From a virus, in the IMG/VR virus record IMGVR_UViG_3300031211_000007, positions 1 to 52,664 of that record: DNA of 52,664 nt; one strand, written 5' to 3'. A program made the position numbers and the translations under genes. The first letter of the stretch is position 1; the number at the start of each line of letters is the position of its first letter. A model generated the notes under the pieces. It saw only the letters and a program-made list of their open reading frames with translations. It made no database searches and was not told the DNA's origin. Shown piece after piece: positions 6,049-47,142 of the stretch.

Positions 6049-6630
6049 TTATTTCTTCTTAGTGGGTCTTTTTCTTTTGGCCTTTACTTTACCTTTATTC
6101 TTTTTTTTCTTTTTACGTTTCCATGTGGGTTTACCCAGCGTTTTGCTACGCAGTCCTTCATCGATTAGGTTTCTATCAACACCTAGCTTCTCGTTAAGTA
6201 TTTTAACGTTTAGTTTCCATTTAATCTTAGACCTTTCTTTATGTTCTTGGAAGCAGAATCCGACATATTTTTCTACGTCTTCCTTTTTCCATTTATTTAC
6301 TTTAGCTATGTGCGCATAGGCTTCTTTCTTTTTACCTATTGCTATGGTCCTACCTATATGTTTAACTTGATGACATCTAGGACATAGGCTTACTAATCCT
6401 TTAAGTAATTGTACACCATCTTTTTGGTAAATCCAAATTTCATGACATTCTAAATCATGTCTGTAACCTTGATTTGTACCCACGTCTTTACATATCTCGC
6501 ATTTGTGATTAGCTTTTGCGTAAGATTGTTTTCTAAGTCTATCCCATTCTTTTTTTGGTAATATGCTTCTGACGTTGGAGTAGAAGGATGTTGATGGGAC
6601 CAGTTCTATTTTAAGTTTTATTTTCGACAT
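6049..6630 (-). CDS. HNH endonuclease-like protein
   Basis: The 193-aa protein has a zinc-HNH architecture: C-E-I-C at 44-47, E-C-H-E-I-W at 61-66 (catalytic His) and C-P-R-C-H-x-x-K-H at 83-91. The N-terminal sequence L-V-P-S-T-S-x-Y-x-N-V-R-S and the W-K-L/R-S-K pattern match a bacterial and phage HNH family in which the domain follows that same leader. The last 30 residues are almost all Lys/Arg, a probable DNA-binding tail. It may be a packaging-associated nicking enzyme or a free-standing endonuclease; context does not decide. Confidence 0.82.
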   Translation of the reverse strand: MSKIKLKIELVPSTSFYSNVRSILPKKEWDRLRKQSYAKANHKCEICKDVGTNQGYRHDLECHEIWIYQKDGVQLLKGLVSLCPRCHQVKHIGRTIAIGKKKEAYAHIAKVNKWKKEDVEKYVGFCFQEHKERSKIKWKLNVKILNEKLGVDRNLIDEGLRSKTLGKPTWKRKKKKKNKGKVKAKRKRPTKKK

Positions 6631-6657
6631 ATACTAATAAATATATGCGAGGTGCGA

Positions 6658-7140
6658 TTATGGTTGTATTCTCTGTAAAGTGTTTGAGTTGTATACTAAA
6701 AAGTCTTTAGTAAATTTATATCTTGGGACCATCCATCCTTTTGTTTCTGACGCTGGGTCACCAGCATTATCTTTAAAGATAAAATTTTGTTTATATTTTT
6801 CTATGATATCGAGTAGTTTATTCTTTCTTATATACCAGATTTCGTTAAGGTTTATGAAATAAGTTACAAACCATTCGGCTTCGCTAACCATGATACCAGA
6901 TTTTTTACCTCTACATTGCACCTCTACAAAAATATTACCAGTATCCCATGTTGGTTTGCAGAATAAATCTGTCTTTATTTCGTATTTTATATTTTTACCT
7001 TTCCTTCGTATAATGGCATCATATCGATTATCATCATTTTTGGATATCAGTTCACCACCAAGTTTTTTAAGGTGATTGATGACAAAGTCTTCCCCTTCCT
7101 TGCCCTCACTGAGGTCTTCTCTAAAACTGTAGTTCGCCAT
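6658..7140 (-). CDS. PD-(D/E)XK nuclease-like protein
   Basis: 160 aa with the restriction-endonuclease-fold signature: an N-terminal G-x-x-G-E-D-F-V helix (E17), N-R-Y-D-A (D41) and Y-E-I-K-T-D (E54, K56), followed by a beta strand and G-N-I-F-V-E-V-Q. This spacing is typical of PD-(D/E)XK phage nucleases and Holliday-junction-resolvase-like proteins. It lies beside the HNH gene on the same strand. The substrate is unknown; host DNA breakdown or recombination intermediates are possible. Confidence 0.78.
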   Translation of the reverse strand: MANYSFREDLSEGKEGEDFVINHLKKLGGELISKNDDNRYDAIIRRKGKNIKYEIKTDLFCKPTWDTGNIFVEVQCRGKKSGIMVSEAEWFVTYFINLNEIWYIRKNKLLDIIEKYKQNFIFKDNAGDPASETKGWMVPRYKFTKDFLVYNSNTLQRIQP

Positions 7141-7186
7141 AAGAAATTTTATTTAAAGATAACCCTTATTTATAAAAAAATCAAGA

Positions 7187-7194
7187 TATTTATA
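7187..7194 (+). promoter_or_regulatory. TATTTATA late-promoter candidate
   Basis: GATATTTATAG lies 24 bases before ATG 7219. Same motif as at 5727 and upstream of the structural genes. Confidence 0.4.
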
Positions 7195-7218
7195 GTAGTA
7201 AGCAGACAATAAAAGACA

Positions 7219-7473
7219 ATGAAAGATAAAAAAAGGATAGTGGCGTTTATTTATAAGTTATTCATGATAGTGTTGATATTATCTCAGATATATTTACTGA
7301 TATTCCCTGTTGTTAATTTATTCACGATATTAACCAATCTTGTTTTGATAGTATATTTAAGTTTTAGGTTTTACCTATTACATAAATTATGTGAGAATAC
7401 AGATAAGATAAATAAGAGCGTAATACGTTTGATTGAGACCTATTGCGAGGGCTGTGATAAGGAGTCTGAGTAA
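7219..7473 (+). CDS. Two-pass membrane protein, 84 aa
   Basis: A basic start (M-K-D-K-K-R) is followed by two hydrophobic segments (about 8-28 and 31-50) and a charged cytoplasmic tail with two Cys (C-E-G-C near the end). The positive-inside rule suggests both termini are in the cytoplasm. Size and topology fit a holin-like protein, but no lysis partner is adjacent. It converges with the next gene, leaving one base between the stop codons. Confidence 0.6.
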   Translation: MKDKKRIVAFIYKLFMIVLILSQIYLLIFPVVNLFTILTNLVLIVYLSFRFYLLHKLCENTDKINKSVIRLIETYCEGCDKESE

Positions 7474-14393: not shown

Positions 14394-17300
14394 TTATTTA
14401 GGATTACTAACCTTTGTCTTAATGCCACTCTTGGCGGTGTAAGATAGTTTGATATTACCACCTTCTTTTAGGTTACCATCCATAACCTCATCAGTTATAG
14501 GGTCCTCAACGTACTTCTGAATTGCTTTCTTAAGTGGTCTAGCACCATATTCTTTATGATACCCCTCTTTAGCAATGTAATCCATAGCACTCTTATTCAC
14601 TTGCAAGTAATAATTTAACTCGCTTACCCTACTTTTAACAATATCAATTTCGTTTTTAATTATTTCATTGATATCTGTTTGTTTAAGTGAATTAAAGATG
14701 ATTGTTTCATCTATCCTATTTAAAAATTCAGGTTTAAATTTATCTTTTAAAGCCTTTTGAATTATTGATTTAGCACGTTCTTCCTCGTTTATAATAGAGT
14801 TCTTGGTCTCAAAACCAATGCCCTTACCAAAATTACTTAACTCTCTAACACCAATGTTAGAAGTCATAATAATGATTGTATTCTTAAAGTCTACCTTCCT
14901 ATCATTACTGTCAGTTAAATAACCTTCATCTAGAAGCTGTAACATTAAGTTGAAGATGTCTTCATGGGCTTTCTCAATTTCATCAAATAAGATTACAGAA
15001 TAAGGTCTACGTCTAACTGCTTCAGTAAGTTTACCCCCTTCTCCGTATCCAACATAACCTGGGGGTGCTCCAATTAATTTAGTCATGGAGAATTTTTCCA
15101 TGTACTCTGACATATCTACCTTTATTAAGGATTCTTTATCACCGAATACCTGTTCAGCAATTACTTTAGATAGATGTGTTTTACCTACACCTGTTGGACC
15201 TAAGAAGATAAAAGAACCCATTGGTTTATATGCGTTTCTAATACCTAATCTACTTCTTCTAATACATTTAGATATCTTACTAACTGCCTTATCTTGACCG
15301 ATAACGATATCTTTCAAGTCTTTCTCAAGGTTCTTAAGAGTGTTGGCCTCTACTGACGTCAATTTGGTTAATGGGATACCTGTCATAGTTGATATTACAG
15401 TTTCTACCATTTCACTAGTTATCTCCGTAAAGTTAACTTCATTATTATTTTCCCACTCAAACATCATGTTTTCAAGCTCTGTCTCTAACTTTAATCTATC
15501 GTTTTTAAGCTTAGCGGCATCTTCAAAGTCTTGCTGTTTGATGACAGCTTTCATCTCTTCTTGAATATCAACTATCTTATCCCTTATAGTTTTTATTTTT
15601 TTAGGTAGCTTAACGTCTATGTTGGTAAACGCACCAGTTTCATCCATTATATCAATGGCCTTGTCTGGCATAGCTCTATCAGACACATACCTGTCAGCTA
15701 ATTTGATAATTAGGTCAATGACCTTATCACTGTACTTAACTTTATGATAATTTTCGTAATTATCTTTTATGTTGGTTAGAATATCTTTAGTCTCGTCTAA
15801 AGATGGTTCTCTAACTAGAACTTCTTGAAACCTTCTTGTTAAAGCACCGTCAGTTTCAATATTTTCACGATATTCATCCAATGTTGTAGCACCTATGATT
15901 TGAATTTCACCTCTAGCTAAAGCTGGTTTAAAAATATTAGATGCGTCTAGCGCTCCTGATGCGCCACCAGCACCTACTATGGTGTGTAACTCATCAATAA
16001 ACAAAACAACATCGGTGTTGTCTTTAAGTTCTTCTAAAATAGCTTTCATTCTCTCTTCAAATTGACCACGGTACTTAGTACCTGCAACAATAGAAGCTAA
16101 ATCTAATGAGAATATGCGCTTACCTAATAATGGTTTAGGTGCGTCACCACTGTTTATTAATAAGGCCAAACCTTCTACTATTGATGTGTTATGAGTCACA
16201 ACATAATTATCCGTGACATATAAGTGGTTCTCATCTTCAATTTTAATACACTTAGCCTCTTTAACACCAATAAAATTAATATCGGTAATATTATTTTTAA
16301 GAGTGTCTGAATATTGATAATTTAATGGAAGTCGCTCTATTTTTCTTTGTAACCTAAATAAATTTCTAGGGGTTTTATACCTAATTGTTAAAACGTAAGA
16401 TAATTGCCCTTTTTTACGTTCATCTTTATAAGTGAAAAAAGTTTGTTTTTCTTTAATTTTTGCTACACCACCTATAGACCAAATTAATTCTTGAATATCT
16501 TTTATTAATTGTTGACTAACACTAGAATATTGAATTGTACCTGTTTCTGTTACCGTACCATCTGAATCTAACAACCCTTGTAATAAACTAATTTTTTGAT
16601 TAAAAGAACCATTTTTATATTTTTCTGGTATAAATTTGGTTTCAGATTTTGTTTCAGTCAAATTTAATGAATTTGTTTCTTTTAATAATGGATGTACCCT
16701 ATCATTCTTATAATGTCTAGTTCTAGCCTCTAAATATTTAGAATCACTTAAACCTAATCTATAAGAATTTGTTTTATTTTTAACTTTATTTAAGTTTAAT
16801 TGATAATCCTCACCAATTATTTCACTTACTAACTCAGGGATTTCAATATCAGCACTTGTAAATGATAATTCACTTTTACCAAAATGACCATCACCCAATA
16901 ATAACCCCATTAAATATGGGTCAATTATATAATTCTTATTATTTTCAATTTTAGAAAAGAGTTGATTTGATACTAAAGGAATTTTCAGTTCATAATTAGT
17001 GTTTTCGATTTTATCCTTTATATCAAGGGTATTGATAGTTGACCATGTGTGGTTTCTATTTTCGCCTTTTGGAATTCCATATACTTGCCATAAATGTTCA
17101 CCACATGCTTCAGTACTCCTACCATCTTTAAATGTTATTTGATAAATATCTTTCTCACCTTGTGGATAGGTACCAATTACCTTAGTTACGTCACCATTAG
17201 GTGTTAAAACATCATCACCAACTTCTATTTCACCCATAGTAGTCCAACCATTAGGTGTAAGTATTTTAGCTGTTAGAGGTTGTGCCTTACCCACACCAGC

Positions 17301-17972
17301 TTCACCAATCAGCACTGGGTTATTTTTCTTTCTTCTAGATAATATTGCTGTGACTCTTCTAATCTCATCACCTCTGCCCACAACTGGGTCGATTCTGTTT
17401 TCGGATGCTGCTCTAGAGATATCTCTACAAAAATTATCTAGTACTTCAGTTTTAGAAGAGTTTTTGGATTTTCTTTTTTTAGGGTTATTAAGTGGAATGT
17501 TCTCAAACTCACTATCGGTTGGTTCATTTATGTTGTTTTCGGGTTCCATTAGTAATTGTTTAAAAGTTTTATAATTCATTTTAAGTTTATTGAACGATTT
17601 TTGTGCATCACACTTCGTTTTAAGTAGCGCTAACATCAAATGCTTTTCTGAGATAAGATTCTCATTCATATTATCACACTCTTTCTTCATTTGATTGATT
17701 AAAAACTTAGTAGACTCACTAGGTAATATCTCTGGTGAAGAACTATAAGCTTTATTTGTATTTATAACACTATTAGTTAAGAGTGAATCAACTTGGTCAA
17801 ATAAACTTTCAATATTGAAATTCGCATTCATCAATATTTGATAAACAGCATTGTCGGCATGTAAAATAATCGATAAGGTTATGTGCTCTGGTCTTATTTT
17901 ATTGTCTTCATAATCTTTAGCACTACTCATAGCACCTCTCATAATTTCACTTAACGTTTTATTGAATTTCAT
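14394..17972 (-). CDS. clpC: ClpC-like AAA+ unfoldase with an intein in its first Walker A motif
   Basis: 1192 aa before splicing, about 826 after removing the 366-aa intein. Order: Clp N domain (about 1-140), linker, AAA+ module 1 with V-V-G-R and G-E-A-G-V-G-K (223-229) interrupted by the intein and resumed by T-S-I-V-E-G-L, Walker B F-I-D-E, a UVR-like coiled-coil (Q-D-F-E-D-A-A-K-L-K), then AAA+ module 2 with G-P-T-G-V-G-K-T, F-D-E-I-E-K-A-H and the G-Y-V-G pore loop. A G-I-G-F loop matches the ClpP-docking loop position of ClpC/ClpA. It would unfold substrates for host ClpP (inference). It is driven by a host-type promoter, so expression is probably early. Confidence 0.93.
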   Translation of the reverse strand: MKFNKTLSEIMRGAMSSAKDYEDNKIRPEHITLSIILHADNAVYQILMNANFNIESLFDQVDSLLTNSVINTNKAYSSSPEILPSESTKFLINQMKKECDNMNENLISEKHLMLALLKTKCDAQKSFNKLKMNYKTFKQLLMEPENNINEPTDSEFENIPLNNPKKRKSKNSSKTEVLDNFCRDISRAASENRIDPVVGRGDEIRRVTAILSRRKKNNPVLIGEAGVGKAQPLTAKILTPNGWTTMGEIEVGDDVLTPNGDVTKVIGTYPQGEKDIYQITFKDGRSTEACGEHLWQVYGIPKGENRNHTWSTINTLDIKDKIENTNYELKIPLVSNQLFSKIENNKNYIIDPYLMGLLLGDGHFGKSELSFTSADIEIPELVSEIIGEDYQLNLNKVKNKTNSYRLGLSDSKYLEARTRHYKNDRVHPLLKETNSLNLTETKSETKFIPEKYKNGSFNQKISLLQGLLDSDGTVTETGTIQYSSVSQQLIKDIQELIWSIGGVAKIKEKQTFFTYKDERKKGQLSYVLTIRYKTPRNLFRLQRKIERLPLNYQYSDTLKNNITDINFIGVKEAKCIKIEDENHLYVTDNYVVTHNTSIVEGLALLINSGDAPKPLLGKRIFSLDLASIVAGTKYRGQFEERMKAILEELKDNTDVVLFIDELHTIVGAGGASGALDASNIFKPALARGEIQIIGATTLDEYRENIETDGALTRRFQEVLVREPSLDETKDILTNIKDNYENYHKVKYSDKVIDLIIKLADRYVSDRAMPDKAIDIMDETGAFTNIDVKLPKKIKTIRDKIVDIQEEMKAVIKQQDFEDAAKLKNDRLKLETELENMMFEWENNNEVNFTEITSEMVETVISTMTGIPLTKLTSVEANTLKNLEKDLKDIVIGQDKAVSKISKCIRRSRLGIRNAYKPMGSFIFLGPTGVGKTHLSKVIAEQVFGDKESLIKVDMSEYMEKFSMTKLIGAPPGYVGYGEGGKLTEAVRRRPYSVILFDEIEKAHEDIFNLMLQLLDEGYLTDSNDRKVDFKNTIIIMTSNIGVRELSNFGKGIGFETKNSIINEEERAKSIIQKALKDKFKPEFLNRIDETIIFNSLKQTDINEIIKNEIDIVKSRVSELNYYLQVNKSAMDYIAKEGYHKEYGARPLKKAIQKYVEDPITDEVMDGNLKEGGNIKLSYTAKSGIKTKVSNPK
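16188..17285 (-). other. Class 3-type intein with LAGLIDADG endonuclease in the Clp gene
   Basis: Residues A230-N595 of the precursor (366 aa). The first residue is Ala, not Cys or Ser; G-W-T-T-M-G-E follows. Block B reads C-G-E-H-L-W (W at intein residue 66), block F K-C-I-K-I and block G V-V-T-H-N followed by +1 Thr. Trp, Cys and Thr at these places are the W-C-T hallmark of class 3 inteins, which use an internal Cys as first nucleophile. Two LAGLIDADG motifs (L-L-L-G-D-G-H at 357-363, L-L-D-S-D-G at 467-472) indicate a homing endonuclease. Splicing restores G-V-G-K-T. Confidence 0.9.
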
Positions 17973-18075: not shown

Positions 18076-18513
18076 ATGTTAATAAAAAAGAAAGTGGATG
18101 GTGATATTGTAAGAAGTCATTACAAGTCATCTAATTTGCTGGTCTCTGAATACGACCAGACTAACAAGGATTTAACCATTACATTTAAAAACGGTGGTCA
18201 GTATAAATACATAGATGTATCACCTACTGATTATATGCGTTTTGAATTGGCTGACAGTCAAGGTAAGGTTCTGAATTCAAAAATAAAACCTAATTATAAA
18301 TTTGAAAATCTTGGTAAGGTTGATGTATCATTGATGATTGAAGAAATTAACAAGGTTGATAACGAAGAAAAGAAAGAATATCAAGGTGTTGTGATATCTG
18401 CAATGAAAGGTATGATTCAAGATTGGGATGATAATGATGAAGAATTCTCAGACGCTAAACTTGATAAGGTTGTTAAATTTATTGAAAAGTATAAAGAAAA
18501 AATAAATTCATGA
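18076..18513 (+). CDS. KTSC-domain protein, 145 aa
   Basis: Residues about 14-75 match the KTSC pattern: S-S-N-L, Y-D, L-T-I-T-F-K-N-G-G-Q-Y-K-Y, a V-S-P-x-x-Y segment, then A-D-S-Q-G-K-V-L-N-S-K-I-K-P-N-Y. The domain is named after a Lys-tRNA synthetase fusion and occurs widely in phages and plasmids; its molecular role is not settled. An acidic C-terminal helical tail follows. The stop overlaps the next ATG (ATGA), so translation of the 54-aa gene is coupled. It is the first gene of the unit that includes thymidylate synthase. Confidence 0.82.
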   Translation: MLIKKKVDGDIVRSHYKSSNLLVSEYDQTNKDLTITFKNGGQYKYIDVSPTDYMRFELADSQGKVLNSKIKPNYKFENLGKVDVSLMIEEINKVDNEEKKEYQGVVISAMKGMIQDWDDNDEEFSDAKLDKVVKFIEKYKEKINS

Positions 18514-24063: not shown

Positions 24064-25896
24064 ATGTTAACTGGAAATGAAATTTTAAATGAGTATACTA
24101 AGTGTTTAGTCGACCCATGTTATGCAATTACCGAATATTTAAAAACCTTTGATAAAACAAAAGAAGGGTTTGTTCCGTTCAAACTATTCCCTAAACAAAG
24201 AGATATTATAAAAGCCTATAAAAATCACAGGTTCACTATGGTTACTAAACCTAGACAGGCTGGTGTATCTACAACAACAGCTGCTTATGCCGCAGTAAAA
24301 GCTATATTCGCTGACCCTAATAACCCAGAGGCTATTCTAATTCTTGCAAATAAGCAAGATATGGCCTTTGAATTCCTTGATAAGATTAAAGATTTTGTTA
24401 ATCAATTCCCTAGATGGGCATGGGGGTCTGAGTATTATGGTACTGAAGAAAAAGAAAATAAAAAGATTTATTCAACTGAGTCTAAAAAAGAACTTAAATT
24501 ACCTAATGGTAGTAGAATTAGGGCTGTTGCTACATCTAAAAACGCATTAAGGGGTTTTACACCTACTTGGTTAATTATGGATGAGGCGGCGTTTATCGAA
24601 AACGGTGCTATTGTTTTTGGTACAGCTTTGACGGCTTTAGGTACTGGTGGTAGAGCTTCTTTGGTTTCTACACCTAACGGTATGGATTCGTTATACTACA
24701 AAACCTATGAACAGGCTATGAGTGGTGATAACGATTTTCATGTTATTGAAATGAAGTGGTATCAAGACCCTAGATATAACAAAGACCTGCGTTGGATTAA
24801 TGAAGATGATGATGATGATATTATAGAAGAGGTTAAGTTTACGAAAGAGGGTGATTCTGAGGAAAGTGTTAGAGCTATCCACGAACACTACGACAAAATG
24901 TTACAGAAAGGTTATAAACCTGAATCTAGTTGGTATCGTGAAATGTGTCGTGGTATGAACAACGATAAAAAGATGATTGCTCAAGAGCTTGATGTATCTT
25001 TTATTGGTTCTGGTGGTGCTGTTATTGACGATAAATACATCACAATGCAAGAAAAGGAGAATGTTATTGAACCTGAATTTATTTCTGGTGATGAAAAAGA
25101 AATTTGGATATGGGAGGAACCTAAAGAGGGACGTCAATATATTTTATCTGCTGATGTTGCTAGAGGTGATGGAGAAGATTCTTCAACTATAGTCATTATA
25201 GATTTTAATACCATGACTCAAGTTATGGAATATAAAGGTAAATTGAGACCAGACTTATTAGGTAATTTGGTTAATGAATATGGTAGAATATATGATGCAT
25301 TGGTGGTTGTAGATATTACTGGTGGTTGGGGTGTTGGTACTATTAACCGTTTATTAGATTTGGGTACACCTAATTTATACTACGCCGACAGTTCAAGCAA
25401 ACCTCTAGAAAAGAAGAGTAGAACCCCAAAGAATTATTCTGATGAAGGTAAATTCCCAGGTTTTAATGTAGGCGCTGGTCTCAGAGCGCCTATTGTAAGT
25501 CATCTAGAAATGATGGTCAGGATGAATGGCGTAAAAGTTAGGTCTAGAAGACTAACCTCAGAGATGAGAACGTTTGTATTTAAAAACGGTAGGGCCGACC
25601 ACATGGATGGGTATCATGATGATTTACTTATGGCTCTAGCTTATGCTTTATGGGTTGCTGAATACTCATTTAAAAAATTAAACGAATCTAAAGAGAAAAG
25701 TAAGGCTATGTTATCTGGTTGGATGGTTAATAAGGGTGAAGTTAGTAATGAGGAATATAGACGTAATGGTTTTACATCAAAAAAAGATAGAAAGAAGAAA
25801 TTAACCACGAAACAACCTAACTTTAGTCACACTGTAGCTAAGAATATGCAAGACCCTAAGGGTAAGTATATGTGGTTATTTAGTGGTTCAAGATAA
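24064..25896 (+). CDS. terL: Terminase large subunit (T4 gp17 type)
   Basis: The packaging motor: it cuts concatemeric DNA and drives it through the portal. 610 aa, equal to the T4 gp17 size. ATPase motifs are T-K-P-R-Q-A-G-V-S-T (Walker A-like, 61-70), W-L-I-M-D-E-A-A (Walker B, 169-176) and V-S-T-P-N-G (motif III, 201-206). The nuclease domain has I-L-S-A-D-V-A-R-G-D, V-V-V-D-I-T-G-G-W-G and a late D-G-Y-H-D-D-L acidic cluster. The C-terminal tail after about residue 545 is Lys-rich and carries K-L-N-E-S-K. No small terminase was recognised next to it. Confidence 0.96.
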   Translation: MLTGNEILNEYTKCLVDPCYAITEYLKTFDKTKEGFVPFKLFPKQRDIIKAYKNHRFTMVTKPRQAGVSTTTAAYAAVKAIFADPNNPEAILILANKQDMAFEFLDKIKDFVNQFPRWAWGSEYYGTEEKENKKIYSTESKKELKLPNGSRIRAVATSKNALRGFTPTWLIMDEAAFIENGAIVFGTALTALGTGGRASLVSTPNGMDSLYYKTYEQAMSGDNDFHVIEMKWYQDPRYNKDLRWINEDDDDDIIEEVKFTKEGDSEESVRAIHEHYDKMLQKGYKPESSWYREMCRGMNNDKKMIAQELDVSFIGSGGAVIDDKYITMQEKENVIEPEFISGDEKEIWIWEEPKEGRQYILSADVARGDGEDSSTIVIIDFNTMTQVMEYKGKLRPDLLGNLVNEYGRIYDALVVVDITGGWGVGTINRLLDLGTPNLYYADSSSKPLEKKSRTPKNYSDEGKFPGFNVGAGLRAPIVSHLEMMVRMNGVKVRSRRLTSEMRTFVFKNGRADHMDGYHDDLLMALAYALWVAEYSFKKLNESKEKSKAMLSGWMVNKGEVSNEEYRRNGFTSKKDRKKKLTTKQPNFSHTVAKNMQDPKGKYMWLFSGSR

Positions 25897-25954: not shown

Positions 25955-27976
25955 ATGGCAGAAAAACCAACAGTATTTCAAAAATTAAGCAATGTCTTCG
26001 GTAAAGAGGGGATAAATCCAGAGGTTAAAAAAACCAATAGATATTCATTGGGTAATGGTACTGAATTACTAAAAACTAAATCAAAAGAGGAATACGAGAC
26101 TACTAAGTTGCAAGCTCAACAAGATAAGTACTTACAAGGTCAGTGGTCTAAAGTAGATGGTGAGCTTTATCAACAAGCAATACACTATGAAACAACTAGA
26201 GTTGGGTCATATTCGGATTTTGAAACGATGGAATTCTATCCAGAGATTTCTGCCACATTGGATATATTCATGGAAGAGTCTACAACCCCTAATGATAAGG
26301 GTGATGTAATAAACATATACTCTGGTAGTAAGAGGGTTAAAAGAATATTGCAGGATTTATTCATTAATAGATTAGACATACACACTTCACTACCTATGTG
26401 GTCTAGGAATTTATGTAAGTATGGCGACAACTTTGTACACCTAAACATTAATAGTAAAGCTGGTGTTGTTGGTGTTAGACAGCTACCTAACTTTGAAATC
26501 GAAAGAAGAGAGAATGACATTAGAGGTGTTATATCCCCATCGCAACTATCTGATGTAAATCAAGATGAGGCTAGAAATAAAACACAATTTTATTGGAAGA
26601 GAAATGAGATGACATTTCAATCATGGCAAATAGGTCACTTTAGACTATTAGGTGATGATAGGAAATTACCTTATGGTACTTCATTTTTAGAGAAAGCTAG
26701 GCGTATATGGAAACAATTGATACTGGCTGAGGATGCTATGTTAGTTTATAGGGTAACTAGGGCACCAGAAAGACGTGTCTATAAAGTTTATGTTGGTAAC
26801 ATAGATAATGAAGACGTTAGTGGTTATGTTGATGATATTGCTAATAGATTTAAGCGTACCCCACTTATTGACCCTCAAACAGGTCAAATGGATGTCAGGT
26901 ATAATCAATTAGGTATTGACCAAGATATTTTTATACCAGTTAGGGATGAAAATGCTCAAACCCCTATTGATACCTTACCTGGTGCTCAGAACTTAGACCA
27001 GATTGCTGATATTGAATACCTACAAAGAAAGTTATTTACGGCGTTAAGGGTACCTAAAACCTTCTTAGGTTTTGAAGAAGCTCAAGGTGAGGGTAAGAAT
27101 TTAGCATTGCTAGATATTAGATTTTCTAGAACAATCAATAGAATACAACAAGCCCTTTTACACGAGCTGAATAAAATTGCTATAATTCACTTACATTTAT
27201 TAGGTTTTACTGATGATTTAGATAATTTTACACTTACATTAAATAACCCATCTACACAAGCTGAAATGCTTAAAGTTGAACATACAGCGGCCAAGGTTAA
27301 TCTATATAAAGATGCAGTTGCTGATTCTGGAAATGGTTTTGGTGCAATGTCTATGACTAGGGCTAAAAGAGAGATATTAGGTTGGAGTGATGAAGAAATA
27401 AAACAGGATTTACTTGAACAAAGAATTGAAAAGGCTGCGGCTCAAGAGTTAGAAAACACAGGTAATGTTATTAAGAATACAGGTGTGTTTGATAACGTTG
27501 ATAGAGTTTATGGTGATATGGAAATGGCCAGACTAGGTGGTGTTGTTGATGAGGAAGGTGACGGACCCGATGGTGGTGGTGGTAACACTGGTAGTGTCGG
27601 CGGTGGCTTTGGTGGTGGCTTTGACGATAATGGTTTAGACTTAGATGATACTGACGTTGAAGACGGTGGTTTTGGTGATACCGAACCTTTAGATGACGCT
27701 GGTGCGGATAATGCCGATGTAGATACTGAAGACACCACTGATGAGTCTAAGAAAAAGAAAGGTAAGATAATTAACGAAAATTTAAAACGTAACCCTAAAA
27801 ATAGTTCAGTTAATAAATTCATTAACATGTTAGATGAGAGTAAAAAGGCTGAAAAGAAAAAGAAAAATGAGGTAACTAAATTTTATGATAAATCAGTTAA
27901 ATTTAACAAAACAATGGATTCTATGATAAATGAAATTGATGATAAATTGGGCGAGACTGAAGATATTAATGAGTAA
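25955..27976 (+). CDS. Portal protein (T4 gp20 type)
   Basis: Dodecameric head vertex through which DNA enters. 673 aa compared with 524 in T4 gp20; the excess is a C-terminal extension. Characteristic segments are Y-P-E-I-S-A-T-L-D-I-F-M-E-E, R-N-L-C-K-Y-G-D-N-F-V, D-T-L-P-G-A-Q-N-L-D-Q-I-A-D-I-E-Y-L-Q-R-K-L and R-V-P-K-T-F-L-G-F. After about residue 525 the sequence is a Gly/Asp-rich low-complexity tail with G-L-D-L-D-D-T-D-V-E, then a Lys-rich end containing M-L-D-E-S. The tail is not typical for gp20 and may contact the scaffold. Confidence 0.94.
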   Translation: MAEKPTVFQKLSNVFGKEGINPEVKKTNRYSLGNGTELLKTKSKEEYETTKLQAQQDKYLQGQWSKVDGELYQQAIHYETTRVGSYSDFETMEFYPEISATLDIFMEESTTPNDKGDVINIYSGSKRVKRILQDLFINRLDIHTSLPMWSRNLCKYGDNFVHLNINSKAGVVGVRQLPNFEIERRENDIRGVISPSQLSDVNQDEARNKTQFYWKRNEMTFQSWQIGHFRLLGDDRKLPYGTSFLEKARRIWKQLILAEDAMLVYRVTRAPERRVYKVYVGNIDNEDVSGYVDDIANRFKRTPLIDPQTGQMDVRYNQLGIDQDIFIPVRDENAQTPIDTLPGAQNLDQIADIEYLQRKLFTALRVPKTFLGFEEAQGEGKNLALLDIRFSRTINRIQQALLHELNKIAIIHLHLLGFTDDLDNFTLTLNNPSTQAEMLKVEHTAAKVNLYKDAVADSGNGFGAMSMTRAKREILGWSDEEIKQDLLEQRIEKAAAQELENTGNVIKNTGVFDNVDRVYGDMEMARLGGVVDEEGDGPDGGGGNTGSVGGGFGGGFDDNGLDLDDTDVEDGGFGDTEPLDDAGADNADVDTEDTTDESKKKKGKIINENLKRNPKNSSVNKFINMLDESKKAEKKKKNEVTKFYDKSVKFNKTMDSMINEIDDKLGETEDINE

Positions 27977-30198: not shown

Positions 30199-32010
30199 AT
30201 GACCAATGATTATAAAATATTAAGAGGTGGAAAAACTGGTAGCGGTTTATTGATTGAAGGTGACGCTGGTTTTATTGAACCTAGTGACATTAGAAATAAA
30301 TCTTTTATTTCAGAAGTTAATAAAGCTGGTAATGGCCTTGTTATGGCTGAACCGTTAGTTCTATTTGTAATTCTACAAAAATATGGTATTGAAAACAGAA
30401 ATGGTAGGATATATCCAGAAGACATTTTAAGGAGAGAAGCGAACAGATATCAAGAGTTAATTGACCAAAGATTATCTATTGGTGAATGCGTACCAAGAGG
30501 TACTGAAATATTTACTAAAGACGGTTGGAGGGAAATTCAGGATATGGTTATTGGTGATGAGATATTCACTTTAAATACTAACACTAATGAATTAGAAGTA
30601 CAATCAGTTTCTAGAACCACAGATAAAAAATATAATGATGATATGATTCATATATACAACTCTTCATCATTAGATATGTTAGTAACCAAAAAACATAAAA
30701 TTGTTTTATGGGATAGGAATGACAAGCCATATATTTTAACAGCTGAAGAATTATATGATAAAATTAATAATGGTGATTCTAAAGTCTCACATTCATATAT
30801 TAAAAATTCAGGTGAGTGGGTTGGTGAGGATTCTAAAAAAATAAATATCCCGAATTCGAATTATGAAATAGATTCTGAATTATGGGCTAGATTTCTAGGT
30901 ATATTTATCGCTGATGGTCATTGCTCTGGAACTAGAGGGGGTAAAAATAAAAATTCGGTTACTATTACTCAGGTTAAAAAAGAATCTTCAGAAAAAATAA
31001 TAAACTTATTAAATGAGTTACCATTTGAATATTCGATTAGTGATGATAGACAATTCATAATTTATGATAAACCATTATATAATTTTCTATTTGATTTAGG
31101 AAATTCCGAAGAAAAATATATACCTAATTACGCAAAAAATTGGAATGTTAATTTATTGAATATTTTATTAGATTGGATGCTTTTAGGGGATGGTAGAAAT
31201 AGAAGTGATAAAAATGGTAAATTAATGAAAGAATATTATACTATTTCAGATAAATTATCAGAAGACGTTTTTGAAATTATGCTTAAGATTTCTAATGGCG
31301 CAACTTTTAATACCCGCATACCAGAAGATAGGTATATTACAGATACTAAAATAATTAATGAAGAGGTTGAAACTGATGGGATGTTAGAATTAGTTAAACG
31401 TAAAGTTAAAACTAAGCGATTAATAGAAGCGTCTAATTCTAAACCATTGCATATCATTTCTGAAAGACGTTCTAAGGGGATTTCACTAGATACACGTTTT
31501 ACTAAAGCAGAAAAAATACCATTTAATGATAATGTTTATTGTGTTACTGTTGATAATGGAACTTGGTTAATGAGACATAATGGTAAAATTTCTTGGACAC
31601 ACAATAGTGACCACCCAGAGTCATCTGTTATTTCAAATAGAAATGTATCACATGAAATTAAAAAAATATGGTGGGAAGGTACAACCTTAGTTGGTGAAGT
31701 CGAAATCATCATGTCACCTGGTTTTATTAACCAAGGTATAATATCTTGTGAGGGTGACCAAATAGCTAACATGTTAAGAAAGGGAATCCGTGTAGGTGTA
31801 TCTTCTAGGGGTGTTGGTTCGTTAGATAATATAAATGGTAAATTAATTGTACAAGATGATTTCGAAATCATATGTTGGGATATAGTAACTAGTCCTAGTA
31901 CGCCAGGTTCTTATATGTTCAACAATAAGTCTGACGCACAGCCATTTATGGAATCTAAAATGAAGAAAGACAATCTATTAATTGATAAATTAAACAAGTT
32001 TTTAATTTAG
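30199..32010 (+). CDS. Prohead core protease (T4 gp21 type) with an intein at its catalytic His
   Basis: Serine protease that matures the capsid by cleaving scaffold and capsid N-termini. 603 aa before splicing, about 230 after removing a 373-aa intein (T4 gp21 is 212 aa). The N-extein ends R-L-S-I-G-E96; the C-extein starts S470-D-H-P-E with catalytic His472. The Ser motif V-G-V-S-S-R-G is at 532-538, and a W-D-I-V-T-S-P-S segment follows. The intein separates I-G-E from S-D-H-P, so the precursor should be inactive until spliced. It lies between the portal block and the scaffold, as in T4. Confidence 0.93.
   Translation: MTNDYKILRGGKTGSGLLIEGDAGFIEPSDIRNKSFISEVNKAGNGLVMAEPLVLFVILQKYGIENRNGRIYPEDILRREANRYQELIDQRLSIGECVPRGTEIFTKDGWREIQDMVIGDEIFTLNTNTNELEVQSVSRTTDKKYNDDMIHIYNSSSLDMLVTKKHKIVLWDRNDKPYILTAEELYDKINNGDSKVSHSYIKNSGEWVGEDSKKINIPNSNYEIDSELWARFLGIFIADGHCSGTRGGKNKNSVTITQVKKESSEKIINLLNELPFEYSISDDRQFIIYDKPLYNFLFDLGNSEEKYIPNYAKNWNVNLLNILLDWMLLGDGRNRSDKNGKLMKEYYTISDKLSEDVFEIMLKISNGATFNTRIPEDRYITDTKIINEEVETDGMLELVKRKVKTKRLIEASNSKPLHIISERRSKGISLDTRFTKAEKIPFNDNVYCVTVDNGTWLMRHNGKISWTHNSDHPESSVISNRNVSHEIKKIWWEGTTLVGEVEIIMSPGFINQGIISCEGDQIANMLRKGIRVGVSSRGVGSLDNINGKLIVQDDFEIICWDIVTSPSTPGSYMFNNKSDAQPFMESKMKKDNLLIDKLNKFLI
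30487..31605 (+). other. Class 1 intein with LAGLIDADG endonuclease in the prohead protease
   Basis: Residues C97-N469 (373 aa). Cys1 opens C-V-P-R-G-T-E-I-F-T-K-D-G-W. Block B His is in V-T-K-K-H (H166). Block F reads V-Y-C-V-T-V-D-N-G-T-W-L, and the end is W-T-H-N followed by +1 Ser. LAGLIDADG-type motifs are F-L-G-I-F-I-A-D-G (232-240) and L-L-D-W-M-L-L-G-D-G (323-332). It is a full-length, probably mobile intein, unrelated in class to the one in the Clp gene. Confidence 0.92.
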
Positions 32011-33806: not shown

Positions 33807-35609
33807 ATGTCAAATTTTTTAACCTCAGGTAAAGTTGGTAATGTAGGTCTTAACCACATGAAAACAATTCGTGAAAACACTATCAACAAATGGAATTCTT
33901 TAGGATTCTTAGATGGTCTTAAAGGTCACGTTAAAGAGAACATCGCTCAGTTATATGAAAACGAAGCTTCTCACTTGTTAAACGAGTCTACTGACGCTGG
34001 TGGAAGTTCAGGTTCATTCGAAACTGTTGTGTTCCCTATCGTAAGAAGAGTATTCTCAAAGTTATTAGCTAATGATATTGTATCTGTACAAGCTATGAAT
34101 ATGCCAATTGGTAAATTATTCTTCTTTGTACCACAAACATCATCTAGATATGACTCTGCTAGTGGTAGCTACGGTGACCCTTACAAAGACGGTCCTGAAT
34201 TCTCTGCTCACACTTCAATGGGTTCAGATGGTTTACCAGTTGTAAAAGGTGTTGATGGATATACTCCAACAAAATACCAAGAGAAAAACCTATATGACCT
34301 TTATTACAATGATGGATTATTTGATGCATCAAAAGGTGAAATAACAATTCAAACAGGTTCTCTTAACCTAGTAACGTTAAATGAAAGCGGTAAGTTTGAA
34401 GCTGCAAGTAATTTAGCTGAACTTCCAACTGGAACTGATGGTTCTTTAAGGAATGTCATTGTTCAAGTTTCTGGATTTAGTTCAGAGAACAAAGGAAGAT
34501 TAACTGGACCAGATGGTAACCCAATGGACACTGAATCTTTCATGGCATCTTTAAAAGTTACTAACAACACGTCTCTTGATTTAGATGACCAAGATGGTAA
34601 TGTAATTTTTGGTCAAGGGGAAGAAATTCCTTTCAGATTAGTAACTCAAAAATACGGTAAAGGTATTGTTGAATATAATGATGTGTGTGATGACGCTGGT
34701 GTTATCTACTTAGAATTAGATTTAACTCACCCAGTAGAAGCTAACGGAACGTCAACATACGATGGTTATGTAGGTGTTGAATCGGATGCGGATGTAACTG
34801 GATTAACTTCTAATGACTTTGCAGTATCATGGGCAGAATATGCTCCATTAGAACTTGAAACTGAAATGGGAGAAGTATCTTTCAAATTAGACGAAGTTGT
34901 TGTTTCTGTTGAAGAAAGAAAATTGAGAGCTACATGGTCTCCAGAATTAGCGCAAGATGTTAGTGCATTCCACAACATTGATGCTGAAGCTGAATTAACT
35001 GCAATGCTTTCTGAGCAAGTTGCTGCTGAAATTGACAGGGAAATCTTAAGAGACTTAAGAAAAGCTGCTGCATGGCAACTAAGATGGGATTGGAACGGAT
35101 GGAGAAAAGCTTCATTGGCAGCCAATGCTTATACTCAAAAAGACTGGAATCAAACTTTAATTACTAAAGTTAACCAAATTTCAGCACAAATCCACAAGTC
35201 TACTCTTAGAGGTGGTGCTAACTTTATCGTAGTTTCTTCAGAGATTTCTGCTGTATTCGATGATTTAGAGTACTTCCACGTAAGTGATGCATCTCCAGAG
35301 CAAGACCAATATAACATGGGTATCGAGAAAATCGGTTCATTATCAGGTAGATATCAAGTATATAGAGACCCTTATGCACCTTCATGGTCATTGATTATGG
35401 GACACAAAGGTAAGTCTTTATTAGATACTGGTTACATTTACGCACCATACGTGCCAATGCAACTAACACCTACAATGTATAACCCATTCAACTTTGCACC
35501 AGTTAAAGGTATAATGACACGTTATGCTAAGAAAGTGGTAAACAACAGATTCTACGGAGCTGTTAGAGTTGATGGATTAACAACATTTAACCCGAACGAA
35601 TTAAGATAA
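33807..35609 (+). CDS. Major capsid protein (T4 gp23 type)
   Basis: Forms the hexamers of the head shell. 600 aa compared with 521 in T4 gp23. The C-terminal part contains L-S-E-Q-V-A-A-E-I-D-R-E-I-L-R-D-L, a conserved gp23 segment, and a Y-A-P-Y-V-P-M-Q ending region. H-L-L-N-E60-S61 fits the L/I-x-E cleavage consensus of gp21-type proteases and would remove a 60-residue charged leader, close to T4 gp23 processing after residue 65. Codon use is noticeably richer in C-ending and AAA/GAA codons than in neighbours, as expected for a highly expressed gene. A strong terminator follows. Confidence 0.95.
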   Translation: MSNFLTSGKVGNVGLNHMKTIRENTINKWNSLGFLDGLKGHVKENIAQLYENEASHLLNESTDAGGSSGSFETVVFPIVRRVFSKLLANDIVSVQAMNMPIGKLFFFVPQTSSRYDSASGSYGDPYKDGPEFSAHTSMGSDGLPVVKGVDGYTPTKYQEKNLYDLYYNDGLFDASKGEITIQTGSLNLVTLNESGKFEAASNLAELPTGTDGSLRNVIVQVSGFSSENKGRLTGPDGNPMDTESFMASLKVTNNTSLDLDDQDGNVIFGQGEEIPFRLVTQKYGKGIVEYNDVCDDAGVIYLELDLTHPVEANGTSTYDGYVGVESDADVTGLTSNDFAVSWAEYAPLELETEMGEVSFKLDEVVVSVEERKLRATWSPELAQDVSAFHNIDAEAELTAMLSEQVAAEIDREILRDLRKAAAWQLRWDWNGWRKASLAANAYTQKDWNQTLITKVNQISAQIHKSTLRGGANFIVVSSEISAVFDDLEYFHVSDASPEQDQYNMGIEKIGSLSGRYQVYRDPYAPSWSLIMGHKGKSLLDTGYIYAPYVPMQLTPTMYNPFNFAPVKGIMTRYAKKVVNNRFYGAVRVDGLTTFNPNELR

Positions 35610-46143: not shown

Positions 46144-47142
46144 ATGTGGACTACAATGCAAGAAAAGAAATTAAAAGAAATTTATTCAAATAAAACTAAT
46201 TTAGAAATAGCAACAATTTTGAATAAGTCTAAATCTTCAATTGACAATAAAGGGTATAGATTGGGTTTAAAAAAAAGTGAAAAATTTTTATTATGGAGAA
46301 ATAAAAAAGGTCACAAAACTAAAATAAATCTAGGTTATAGAGATTTAAATTATAATGAATTAAAAAAAATTTTTAATAAATATACTTCAATAAGAGAATT
46401 AAAAGAGTTTGATGAGCCAGCTTATCAATCTGCTCGTTTAAAAGGTTATTTAGATGAATTAACGTCTCATATGACCCCATTTAAATATAGTATCCCACAG
46501 ATGATTTTAGAAGACTTAATGAATCAACTTTTAAATTTAAAAGCATCATATAACAATCGAAAAATAATTAAACCATATGAACTAGATTTATATTACAAAG
46601 AATATAAATTGGCTTTTGAGTATCAGGGTAAATATTGGCATACTTTAGAAAATAATGATGAATTAAAAATATCTTTAACCAAGAATAAAAATATCACATT
46701 GATTCATATTTACGAAAAAAGTAGAAATTATATTAAAGATATTAAGAAACAAATTAATGATAATCTTAAACTAATAAATAAAACCACTGACTTAACTTTA
46801 AGAGAAGATGATGTTAACAAAATAAAAATAAATAATGTATATAATAAAATATATAATAAACAAAAATTATTTAAATTATGTAAAAAATATAATTCGTTTA
46901 ATGAATTTAAAAATAAACATGAGAAAGAATATAGAATGTTGTTGAAACTTAAAATTGTTGATGAAGCCGCTAAACATATGCCTGATAAAAAGTCTAATAT
47001 TAAATTAACAATAAATGAATTAAAAAAAATTATAAATAAATATAATAATTTAACGGATTTTAGAAAAAATGAATTGAGGATTTACAAACATTTAAAAAGG
47101 ACTAATAAAGATTATCTCATATCACATCTTAAACGTGAATAA
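46144..47142 (+). CDS. Free-standing homing endonuclease, EDxHD/Vsr-like, with repeated modules
   Basis: 332 aa on the strand opposite to all neighbours, between two minus-strand genes, and more AT-rich than they are. N-terminal HTH (W-T-T-M-Q-E-K-K-L, then S-S-I-D-N-K). The nuclease core is P-Y-E-L-D-L-Y-Y-K-E-Y-K-L-A-F-E-Y-Q-G-K-Y-W-H with E146, D148, E159 and H166. About three copies of a 40-residue module (68-110, about 240-281, 288-329) follow an L-x-K-x-x-x-K-Y-x-S/N-x-x-E/D-F pattern and probably read DNA. The likely target is the sequence at this junction in relatives lacking it. Confidence 0.8.
   Translation: MWTTMQEKKLKEIYSNKTNLEIATILNKSKSSIDNKGYRLGLKKSEKFLLWRNKKGHKTKINLGYRDLNYNELKKIFNKYTSIRELKEFDEPAYQSARLKGYLDELTSHMTPFKYSIPQMILEDLMNQLLNLKASYNNRKIIKPYELDLYYKEYKLAFEYQGKYWHTLENNDELKISLTKNKNITLIHIYEKSRNYIKDIKKQINDNLKLINKTTDLTLREDDVNKIKINNVYNKIYNKQKLFKLCKKYNSFNEFKNKHEKEYRMLLKLKIVDEAAKHMPDKKSNIKLTINELKKIINKYNNLTDFRKNELRIYKHLKRTNKDYLISHLKRE

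What the first reader, a model, noticed from the sequence alone, without database searches (positions are those of the whole stretch)
16188..17285. Class 3-type intein in the Walker A motif of a phage Clp unfoldase
The intein starts with Ala, ends V-V-T-H-N with +1 Thr, has Trp after the block B His-Leu and an internal Cys in K-C-I-K-I: the W-C-T signature of class 3 inteins. It still has both LAGLIDADG motifs. Class 3 inteins are uncommon, and a ClpC Walker A insertion site in a phage is notable. Splicing restores G-V-G-K-T, so ATPase activity depends on it.
Basis: partly seen in the sequence, partly recalled or inferred. Interest (0 to 1): 0.8.

Follow-up and report, generated by a model that had tools for sequence, protein, structure and literature searches.

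The report
Class 3 intein in phage ClpC
A virus of bacteria carries, inside the ATP-binding loop of its protein-unfolding machine ClpC, a self-removing protein parasite (a class 3 intein with its own DNA-cutting domain); the intein and its insertion point are of a known kind, but the host gene is not one we found described, and relatives show that both ATP loops of phage ClpC are repeatedly invaded by different inteins.

Summary
Confirmed. The 1192-aa ClpC-type ORF (window 14394-17972, minus) holds a 366-aa intein at exactly 16188-17285, between Lys and Thr of the D1 Walker A motif (GEAGVGK|T): Ala1, block B His-Leu-Trp, block F Cys, Thr-His-Asn end, +1 Thr, two LAGLIDADG motifs. One correction: the T of 'WCT' is Thr593 (motif G position 5, in V-T-H-N), not the +1 Thr596. 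In 155 distinct sequences block B His and block F Cys are invariant and Trp is present in 154, while residue 1 varies, as expected if Cys575 is the nucleophile. AlphaFold (pLDDT 93) and Foldseek give a HINT fold like class 3 DnaB inteins plus a PI-SceI-like endonuclease. Orthologous phage ClpC genes have the site empty; dS and trees show horizontal homing. 'Uncommon' is overstated: 721 of 50,697 phage records hold a relative, and 140 of 154 relatives follow Gly-Lys. The ClpC/ClpB site seems undescribed in the open literature searched, but also occurs in two bacterial ClpB-like genes. A larger lead lies in relatives: other phage ClpC genes carry split inteins at one or both Walker A motifs, two of them with ClpC encoded in three pieces. 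Splicing itself is inferred.

The parts
14394..17972 (-). ClpC-type unfoldase precursor gene, 1192 aa
   Evidence: Clp_N, AAA_2, AAA_lid_9, ClpB_D2-small; phrog_4871 ATP-dependent protease 9.6e-229
17286..17972 (-). N-extein, residues 1-229 (Clp_N domain and start of D1)
   Evidence: orthologous in intein-free loci
17286..17306 (-). N-terminal part of the D1 Walker A motif, GEAGVGK (residues 223-229)
   Evidence: intact GEPGVGKT in L029, L030 and others
16188..17285 (-). class 3 intein, residues 230-595 (366 aa)
   Evidence: fold
17094..17096 (-). His293, block B position 10
   Evidence: invariant in 155 of 155
17088..17090 (-). Trp295, block B position 12: W of the WCT signature
   Evidence: 154 of 155; aligns with Trp of class 3 DnaB inteins
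16887..16913 (-). LAGLIDADG motif 1, LMGLLLGDG
   Evidence: PI-SceI-like fold
16557..16586 (-). LAGLIDADG motif 2, LLQGLLDSDG
   Evidence: Pfam LAGLIDADG_3 2.5e-10; last Asp is Tyr in L008/L009/L011
16248..16250 (-). Cys575, block F position 4: C of the WCT signature, presumed first nucleophile
   Evidence: 155 of 155
16194..16196 (-). Thr593, block G position 5: T of the WCT signature
   Evidence: THN in 154 of 154 relatives (partly ascertained by the search pattern)
16188..16190 (-). Asn595, last residue of the intein
   Evidence: 155 of 155
16185..16187 (-). Thr596, +1 nucleophile and Walker A Thr
   Evidence: Thr 137 or Ser 17 in 154 relatives
14397..16187 (-). C-extein, residues 596-1192 (rest of D1, D2 with intact Walker A, D2-small)

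Best explanation
The insert is a full-length, mobile class 3 intein. Inferred splicing route: after translation the HINT domain folds; Cys575, activated by His293 and packed with Trp295 and Thr593, attacks the Lys229-Ala230 peptide bond directly (no residue-1 nucleophile is needed); the N-extein passes from Cys575 to +1 Thr596; Asn595 cyclises and releases the intein; an acyl shift leaves GEAGVGK-T, an intact D1 Walker A motif. The LAGLIDADG domain would cut intein-free ClpC genes at this codon boundary, so the intein spreads between co-infecting phages. Until splicing, the D1 ATPase site is interrupted and should be inactive. Shown here: boundaries, motifs, predicted fold, intein-free alleles, horizontal transfer, purifying selection. 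Inferred from characterised class 3 inteins: the chemistry, the DNA cutting and the effect on ATPase.
For: Exact junctions and restored GVGKT against intein-free orthologues. WCT set conserved in 154-155 of 155 sequences while residue 1 drifts among nine residue types. Closest solved structures by sequence are class 3 DnaB inteins 6bs8, 6rix, 6riy. Model pLDDT 93.2, pTM 0.92 matches PI-SceI over its length and class 3 inteins in the splicing domain. Transfer: L008 intein 84-86% identical to L005-L007 where exteins are about 62%, dS 0.39-0.53 against 1.22-1.51, trees conflict. Intein dN/dS about 0.2.
Against: No splicing, cutting or ATPase measurement exists. A predicted fold does not prove activity. 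Extein dS values are near saturation, so the dS contrast is rough. The search patterns partly favoured the Thr of THN.
Confidence: 0.92

Rival explanations
1. A decayed, non-splicing intein that leaves ClpC D1 permanently broken, like the Arthrobacter Arth_1007 intein.
For: Such pseudogenes exist (PMC3196547); nothing measured here shows splicing.
Against: All splicing residues are present, the frame is open through 1192 aa, dN/dS is about 0.2, and the ClpC extein is complete and conserved.
Confidence: 0.04
2. A class 2-type intein in which +1 Thr attacks the N-terminal junction directly.
For: Residue 1 is Ala, as class 2 also allows.
Against: Class 2 inteins lack the WCT signature and were reported only from KlbA (PMC3196547); this family conserves Trp and Cys; nearest structures are class 3.
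Confidence: 0.02
3. The intein splices and has been kept as a regulator of ClpC (timing or redox switch through the catalytic Cys), not merely as a parasite.
For: Splicing of mycobacterial class 3 DnaB inteins is reported to respond to stress (abstracts of PMC6195587 and PMC8557812); Walker A of phage ClpC is invaded repeatedly.
Against: Presence is sporadic with many intein-free orthologues, which fits a mobile parasite; no condition-dependence was tested.
Confidence: 0.08

Closest known systems
Class 3 DnaB inteins of Mycobacterium smegmatis (6bs8) and M. chimaera (6rix, 6riy)
   Same: WCT signature, no nucleophile at residue 1, HINT fold; best sequence matches in the PDB and Foldseek matches
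   Different: Mini-inteins of 125-146 residues in a replicative helicase; this one has a LAGLIDADG endonuclease and sits in ClpC
Class 3 inteins in P-loops of phage terminases and helicases (for example TerL1-a of mycobacteriophages, PMC5050341)
   Same: Phage genes; the Lys|Thr site of the Walker A motif; 140 of 154 relatives collected here follow Gly-Lys
   Different: Host protein is an Hsp100 unfoldase, not a terminase or helicase
Class 3 inteins in D1 Walker A of bacterial ClpB-like proteins (L188 Thiorhodospira sibirica, L189 Planctomycetia MAG)
   Same: Same bond, full-length, WCT signature, 43-45% intein identity
   Different: Cellular genomes; a common origin with the phage ClpC inteins is neither shown nor excluded
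ClpP inteins of green-algal chloroplasts and bacteria (PMC5784728)
   Same: Inteins in the Clp protease system
   Different: In the peptidase subunit, not in the ATPase P-loop

Membership tests
Class 3 inteins | No Cys, Ser or Thr at intein residue 1 | tested here: met
   Ala230
Class 3 inteins | Trp at block B position 12 | tested here: met
   Trp295, aligned with 6bs8 and 6rix
Class 3 inteins | Cys at block F position 4 | tested here: met
   Cys575, aligned with 6bs8 and 6rix
Class 3 inteins | Thr at block G position 5 | tested here: met
   Thr593 in V-T-H-N (definition)
Class 3 inteins | Branched intermediate on the block F Cys, splicing without residue-1 nucleophile | not testable with these tools
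   needs a precursor assay
Class 3 inteins | Falls in the class 3 clade against class 1 inteins | not tested
   trees hold only members of this family; class 1 rows were not added
LAGLIDADG homing endonucleases | Two LAGLIDADG motifs with both acidic residues, two-fold fold | tested here: met
   (PI-SceI, I-DmoI matches)
LAGLIDADG homing endonucleases | Cuts the intein-free site | not testable with these tools
   homing is inferred from sporadic presence and transfer
ClpC-type Clp/Hsp100 unfoldase (extein) | Clp_N, two AAA domains, short middle region, D2-small | tested here: met
   Pfam; phrog_4871
ClpC-type Clp/Hsp100 unfoldase (extein) | Assignment to ClpC rather than ClpA or ClpB | tested here: inconclusive
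   UVR motif weak (8.5e-4, below its cut-off); ClpB and ClpA equivalogs match below cut-off; a ClpP partner was not sought

The most novel reading that the evidence does not exclude
The two Walker A motifs of phage ClpC are a contested intein niche: the same D1 Lys|Thr bond is taken in some phages by this contiguous class 3 intein and in others by a split, Cys1 intein, and in some phages ClpC is made as three polypeptides joined by two protein trans-splicing reactions, so that ClpC activity is gated by splicing, possibly as a timing or stress switch. The invasions and three-piece genes are read directly from sequence; trans-splicing and any switch role are untested.
Probability: 0.15. Interest if true: 0.7.

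Novelty: new member of a known kind. Interest (0 to 1): 0.48.

Why it matters
It adds the Clp/Hsp100 unfoldase P-loop, in phages and in two bacterial ClpB-like genes, to the proteins interrupted by class 3 inteins, with intein-free orthologues and a clear case of transfer between phage lineages. The wider pattern in relatives (one bond invaded by two kinds of intein; ClpC encoded in three pieces with two split inteins) would give a natural system to study competition between inteins for one site, and related split-intein pairs that must avoid joining the wrong pieces.

Tried and rejected
Assembly artefact or chance frame: rejected, near-identical copies occur in three other contigs and diverged copies at the same codon in seven more. 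Cellular contig: rejected, terminase, portal, head protease and major head protein lie in the window and it is a virus record. Purely vertical descent of the ClpC intein: rejected by identities, dS and tree conflict. One origin of all Clp-site class 3 inteins: the first test was invalid because I left a ClpC row (L004) unlabelled; the repeat could not decide (AU p 0.18 with L139, 0.44 without). Reading the short ClpC of L008/L009/L011 as decay: rejected, the rest of D2 follows downstream behind a split intein. Cys at block F alone as a class 3 marker: rejected, the window's Cys1 intein in the head protease has it too. Literature on ClpC, ClpB or Clp ATPase inteins: none found in the open-access library (only ClpP inteins); subscription papers and InBase could not be searched, and Tori and Perler 2011 is not held.

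Full report
Observation. The ORF at window 14394-17972 (minus) is 1192 aa. Residues 230-595, window 16188-17285, interrupt the first Walker A motif: NNPVLIGEAGVGK | AQPLTAKI...VVTHN | TSIVEGLALL. The flanks match Clp_N, AAA, D2 and D2-small domains. One correction: papers on class 3 inteins place the Thr of the WCT triplet at motif G position 5, before the penultimate His (PMC3196547; PMC5050341). Here that is Thr593. Thr596 is the +1 nucleophile and the Walker A Thr.

Context. The window is a virus record with T4-type packaging and head genes: large terminase 24064-25896, portal 25955-27976, head protease 30199-32010, major head protein 33807-35609. Neighbours of ClpC, the ORF at 18076 and thymidylate synthase, also lie beside ClpC in relatives with and without the intein.

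Class. By sequence the closest solved structures are the class 3 DnaB inteins of M. smegmatis and M. chimaera, with the block B Trp and block F Cys aligned (6bs8 is titled 'class 3 DnaB intein'). I collected 154 distinct relatives from viral contigs and bacterial genomes and aligned them with the window. His B10 and Cys F4 are present in all 155 and Trp B12 in 154, while residue 1 is Ala in 130 and otherwise Cys, Ser, Pro, Gly, Met, Asp, Gln or Thr. The patterns of the two broad scans did not include the Trp or the Cys; one did include the TH of THN, so Thr G5 (154 of 154) is partly ascertained. In 140 of 154 the intein follows Gly-Lys. Cys F4 alone is not diagnostic: the window's own Cys1 intein in the head protease has it too.

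Fold. AlphaFold on alignment A2 gave pLDDT 93.2 and pTM 0.92 for residues 224-601. Foldseek matched PI-SceI over the whole chain, and the class 3 inteins 6rix, 6riy and 6bs8 over part of the splicing domain.

Mobility. Copies 99-100% identical occur in three other contigs, and about 70% identical copies in seven more, all at the same codon of ClpC. Orthologues at 75-76% identity (L029, L030) are empty: GEPGVGKTSIIEGL. On the extein tree the six class 3 carriers need six changes and do not form one clade (AU p about 1e-80; quick tree). L008 is the clearest transfer: its ClpC groups with the window, L029 and L030 (SH-aLRT 97-99), but its intein groups with L005-L007 (100/99). L008 against L005-L007: inteins 84-86%, exteins about 62%; intein dS 0.39-0.53, extein dS 1.22-1.51. 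In L008/L009/L011 the last Asp of LAGLIDADG motif 2 is Tyr while the splicing residues are intact, which looks like the loss of endonuclease expected once a site is fixed.

How rare. 721 of 50,697 phage records hold a relative of the intein, but in none of the records does one place cover 80% of the ClpC precursor, so no record of that collection shows this ClpC with this intein. Outside phages, the same Clp D1 site carries class 3 inteins in Thiorhodospira sibirica (L188) and a Planctomycetia MAG (L189), both ClpB-like by my reading, and in viral contigs L115 and L139. Whether these share one origin is open.

Related loci. Phage ClpC has more invaders, all read from sequence. Site D1 G|[T/C]GK: L066/L067, L088 and L286-L288 carry a Cys1 intein with a short N-part; in L066 and L088 the two halves are in separate ORFs with a third ORF between them. 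Site D2 Lys|Thr: L008/L009/L011 (in addition to the class 3 intein in D1), L272-L274, L276, L278, L282 and others carry a Cys1 intein; in L008 and L282 the halves are in separate ORFs. Site D1 Lys|Thr, the same bond as in the window: L271, L277 and L279 carry a Cys1 split intein there and a second interruption at D2. In L271 and L277 ClpC lies in three ORFs: N-piece with IntN; IntC, middle piece and IntN; IntC and C-piece. The N-piece of L271 starts at the edge of the locus, and L279 ends before its C-piece. This resembles the fractured-gene arrangement with split inteins that I recall from Dassa and colleagues (2009); that is memory, not a test.

Mechanism and limits. The class 3 route in the best explanation is inferred from characterised inteins. 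No tool here measures splicing, DNA cutting or ATPase. I judge the intein a new member of a known kind, in a host gene that I could not find described in the open literature searched; the three-piece ClpC genes are the more surprising lead.

Noticed in passing
L271 1-5230; L277 17-5245; L279 2758-5884: Phage ClpC split at both Walker A motifs by Cys1 split inteins (GVGK|C... in D1 and in D2); in L271 and L277 the gene is in three ORFs, implying two trans-splicing joins.
   Followed up: partly
L008 3299-9091 (also L009, L011): The same ClpC carries the class 3 intein in D1 and a split Cys1 intein in D2, with a long ORF (6260-7432) between the halves; LAGLIDADG motif 2 of the class 3 intein has Asp to Tyr.
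   Followed up: partly
L066 1594-5827; L088 2091-5818: ClpC split in D1 Walker A three residues upstream of the class 3 site (GEPG|TGKT or GEPG|CGKT) by an intein with a very short N-part, with a separate ORF between the halves.
   Followed up: partly
window 30199-32010 (+): Head maturation protease interrupted by a Cys1 intein (GE|CVPRG...SWTHN|SDHP), next to a conserved-looking DHP motif; block F Cys present but no block B Trp.
   Followed up: no
window 46144-47142 (+): Free-standing homing-endonuclease-like ORF (phrog_3339, 2.3e-12) beside a phoH-like gene.
   Followed up: no
L118, L123, L126, L135, L137, L141, L148, L172, L187: Nine relatives have Cys at residue 1 together with the full Trp, Cys and Thr signature; seven of them that were in the tree form one branch of it. 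They could be natural tests of whether residue 1 matters in this lineage.
   Followed up: no
L188 3001-4074; L189 2555-3640: Class 3 inteins in D1 Walker A of ClpB-like genes of bacterial genomes (Thiorhodospira sibirica and a Planctomycetia MAG).
   Followed up: partly
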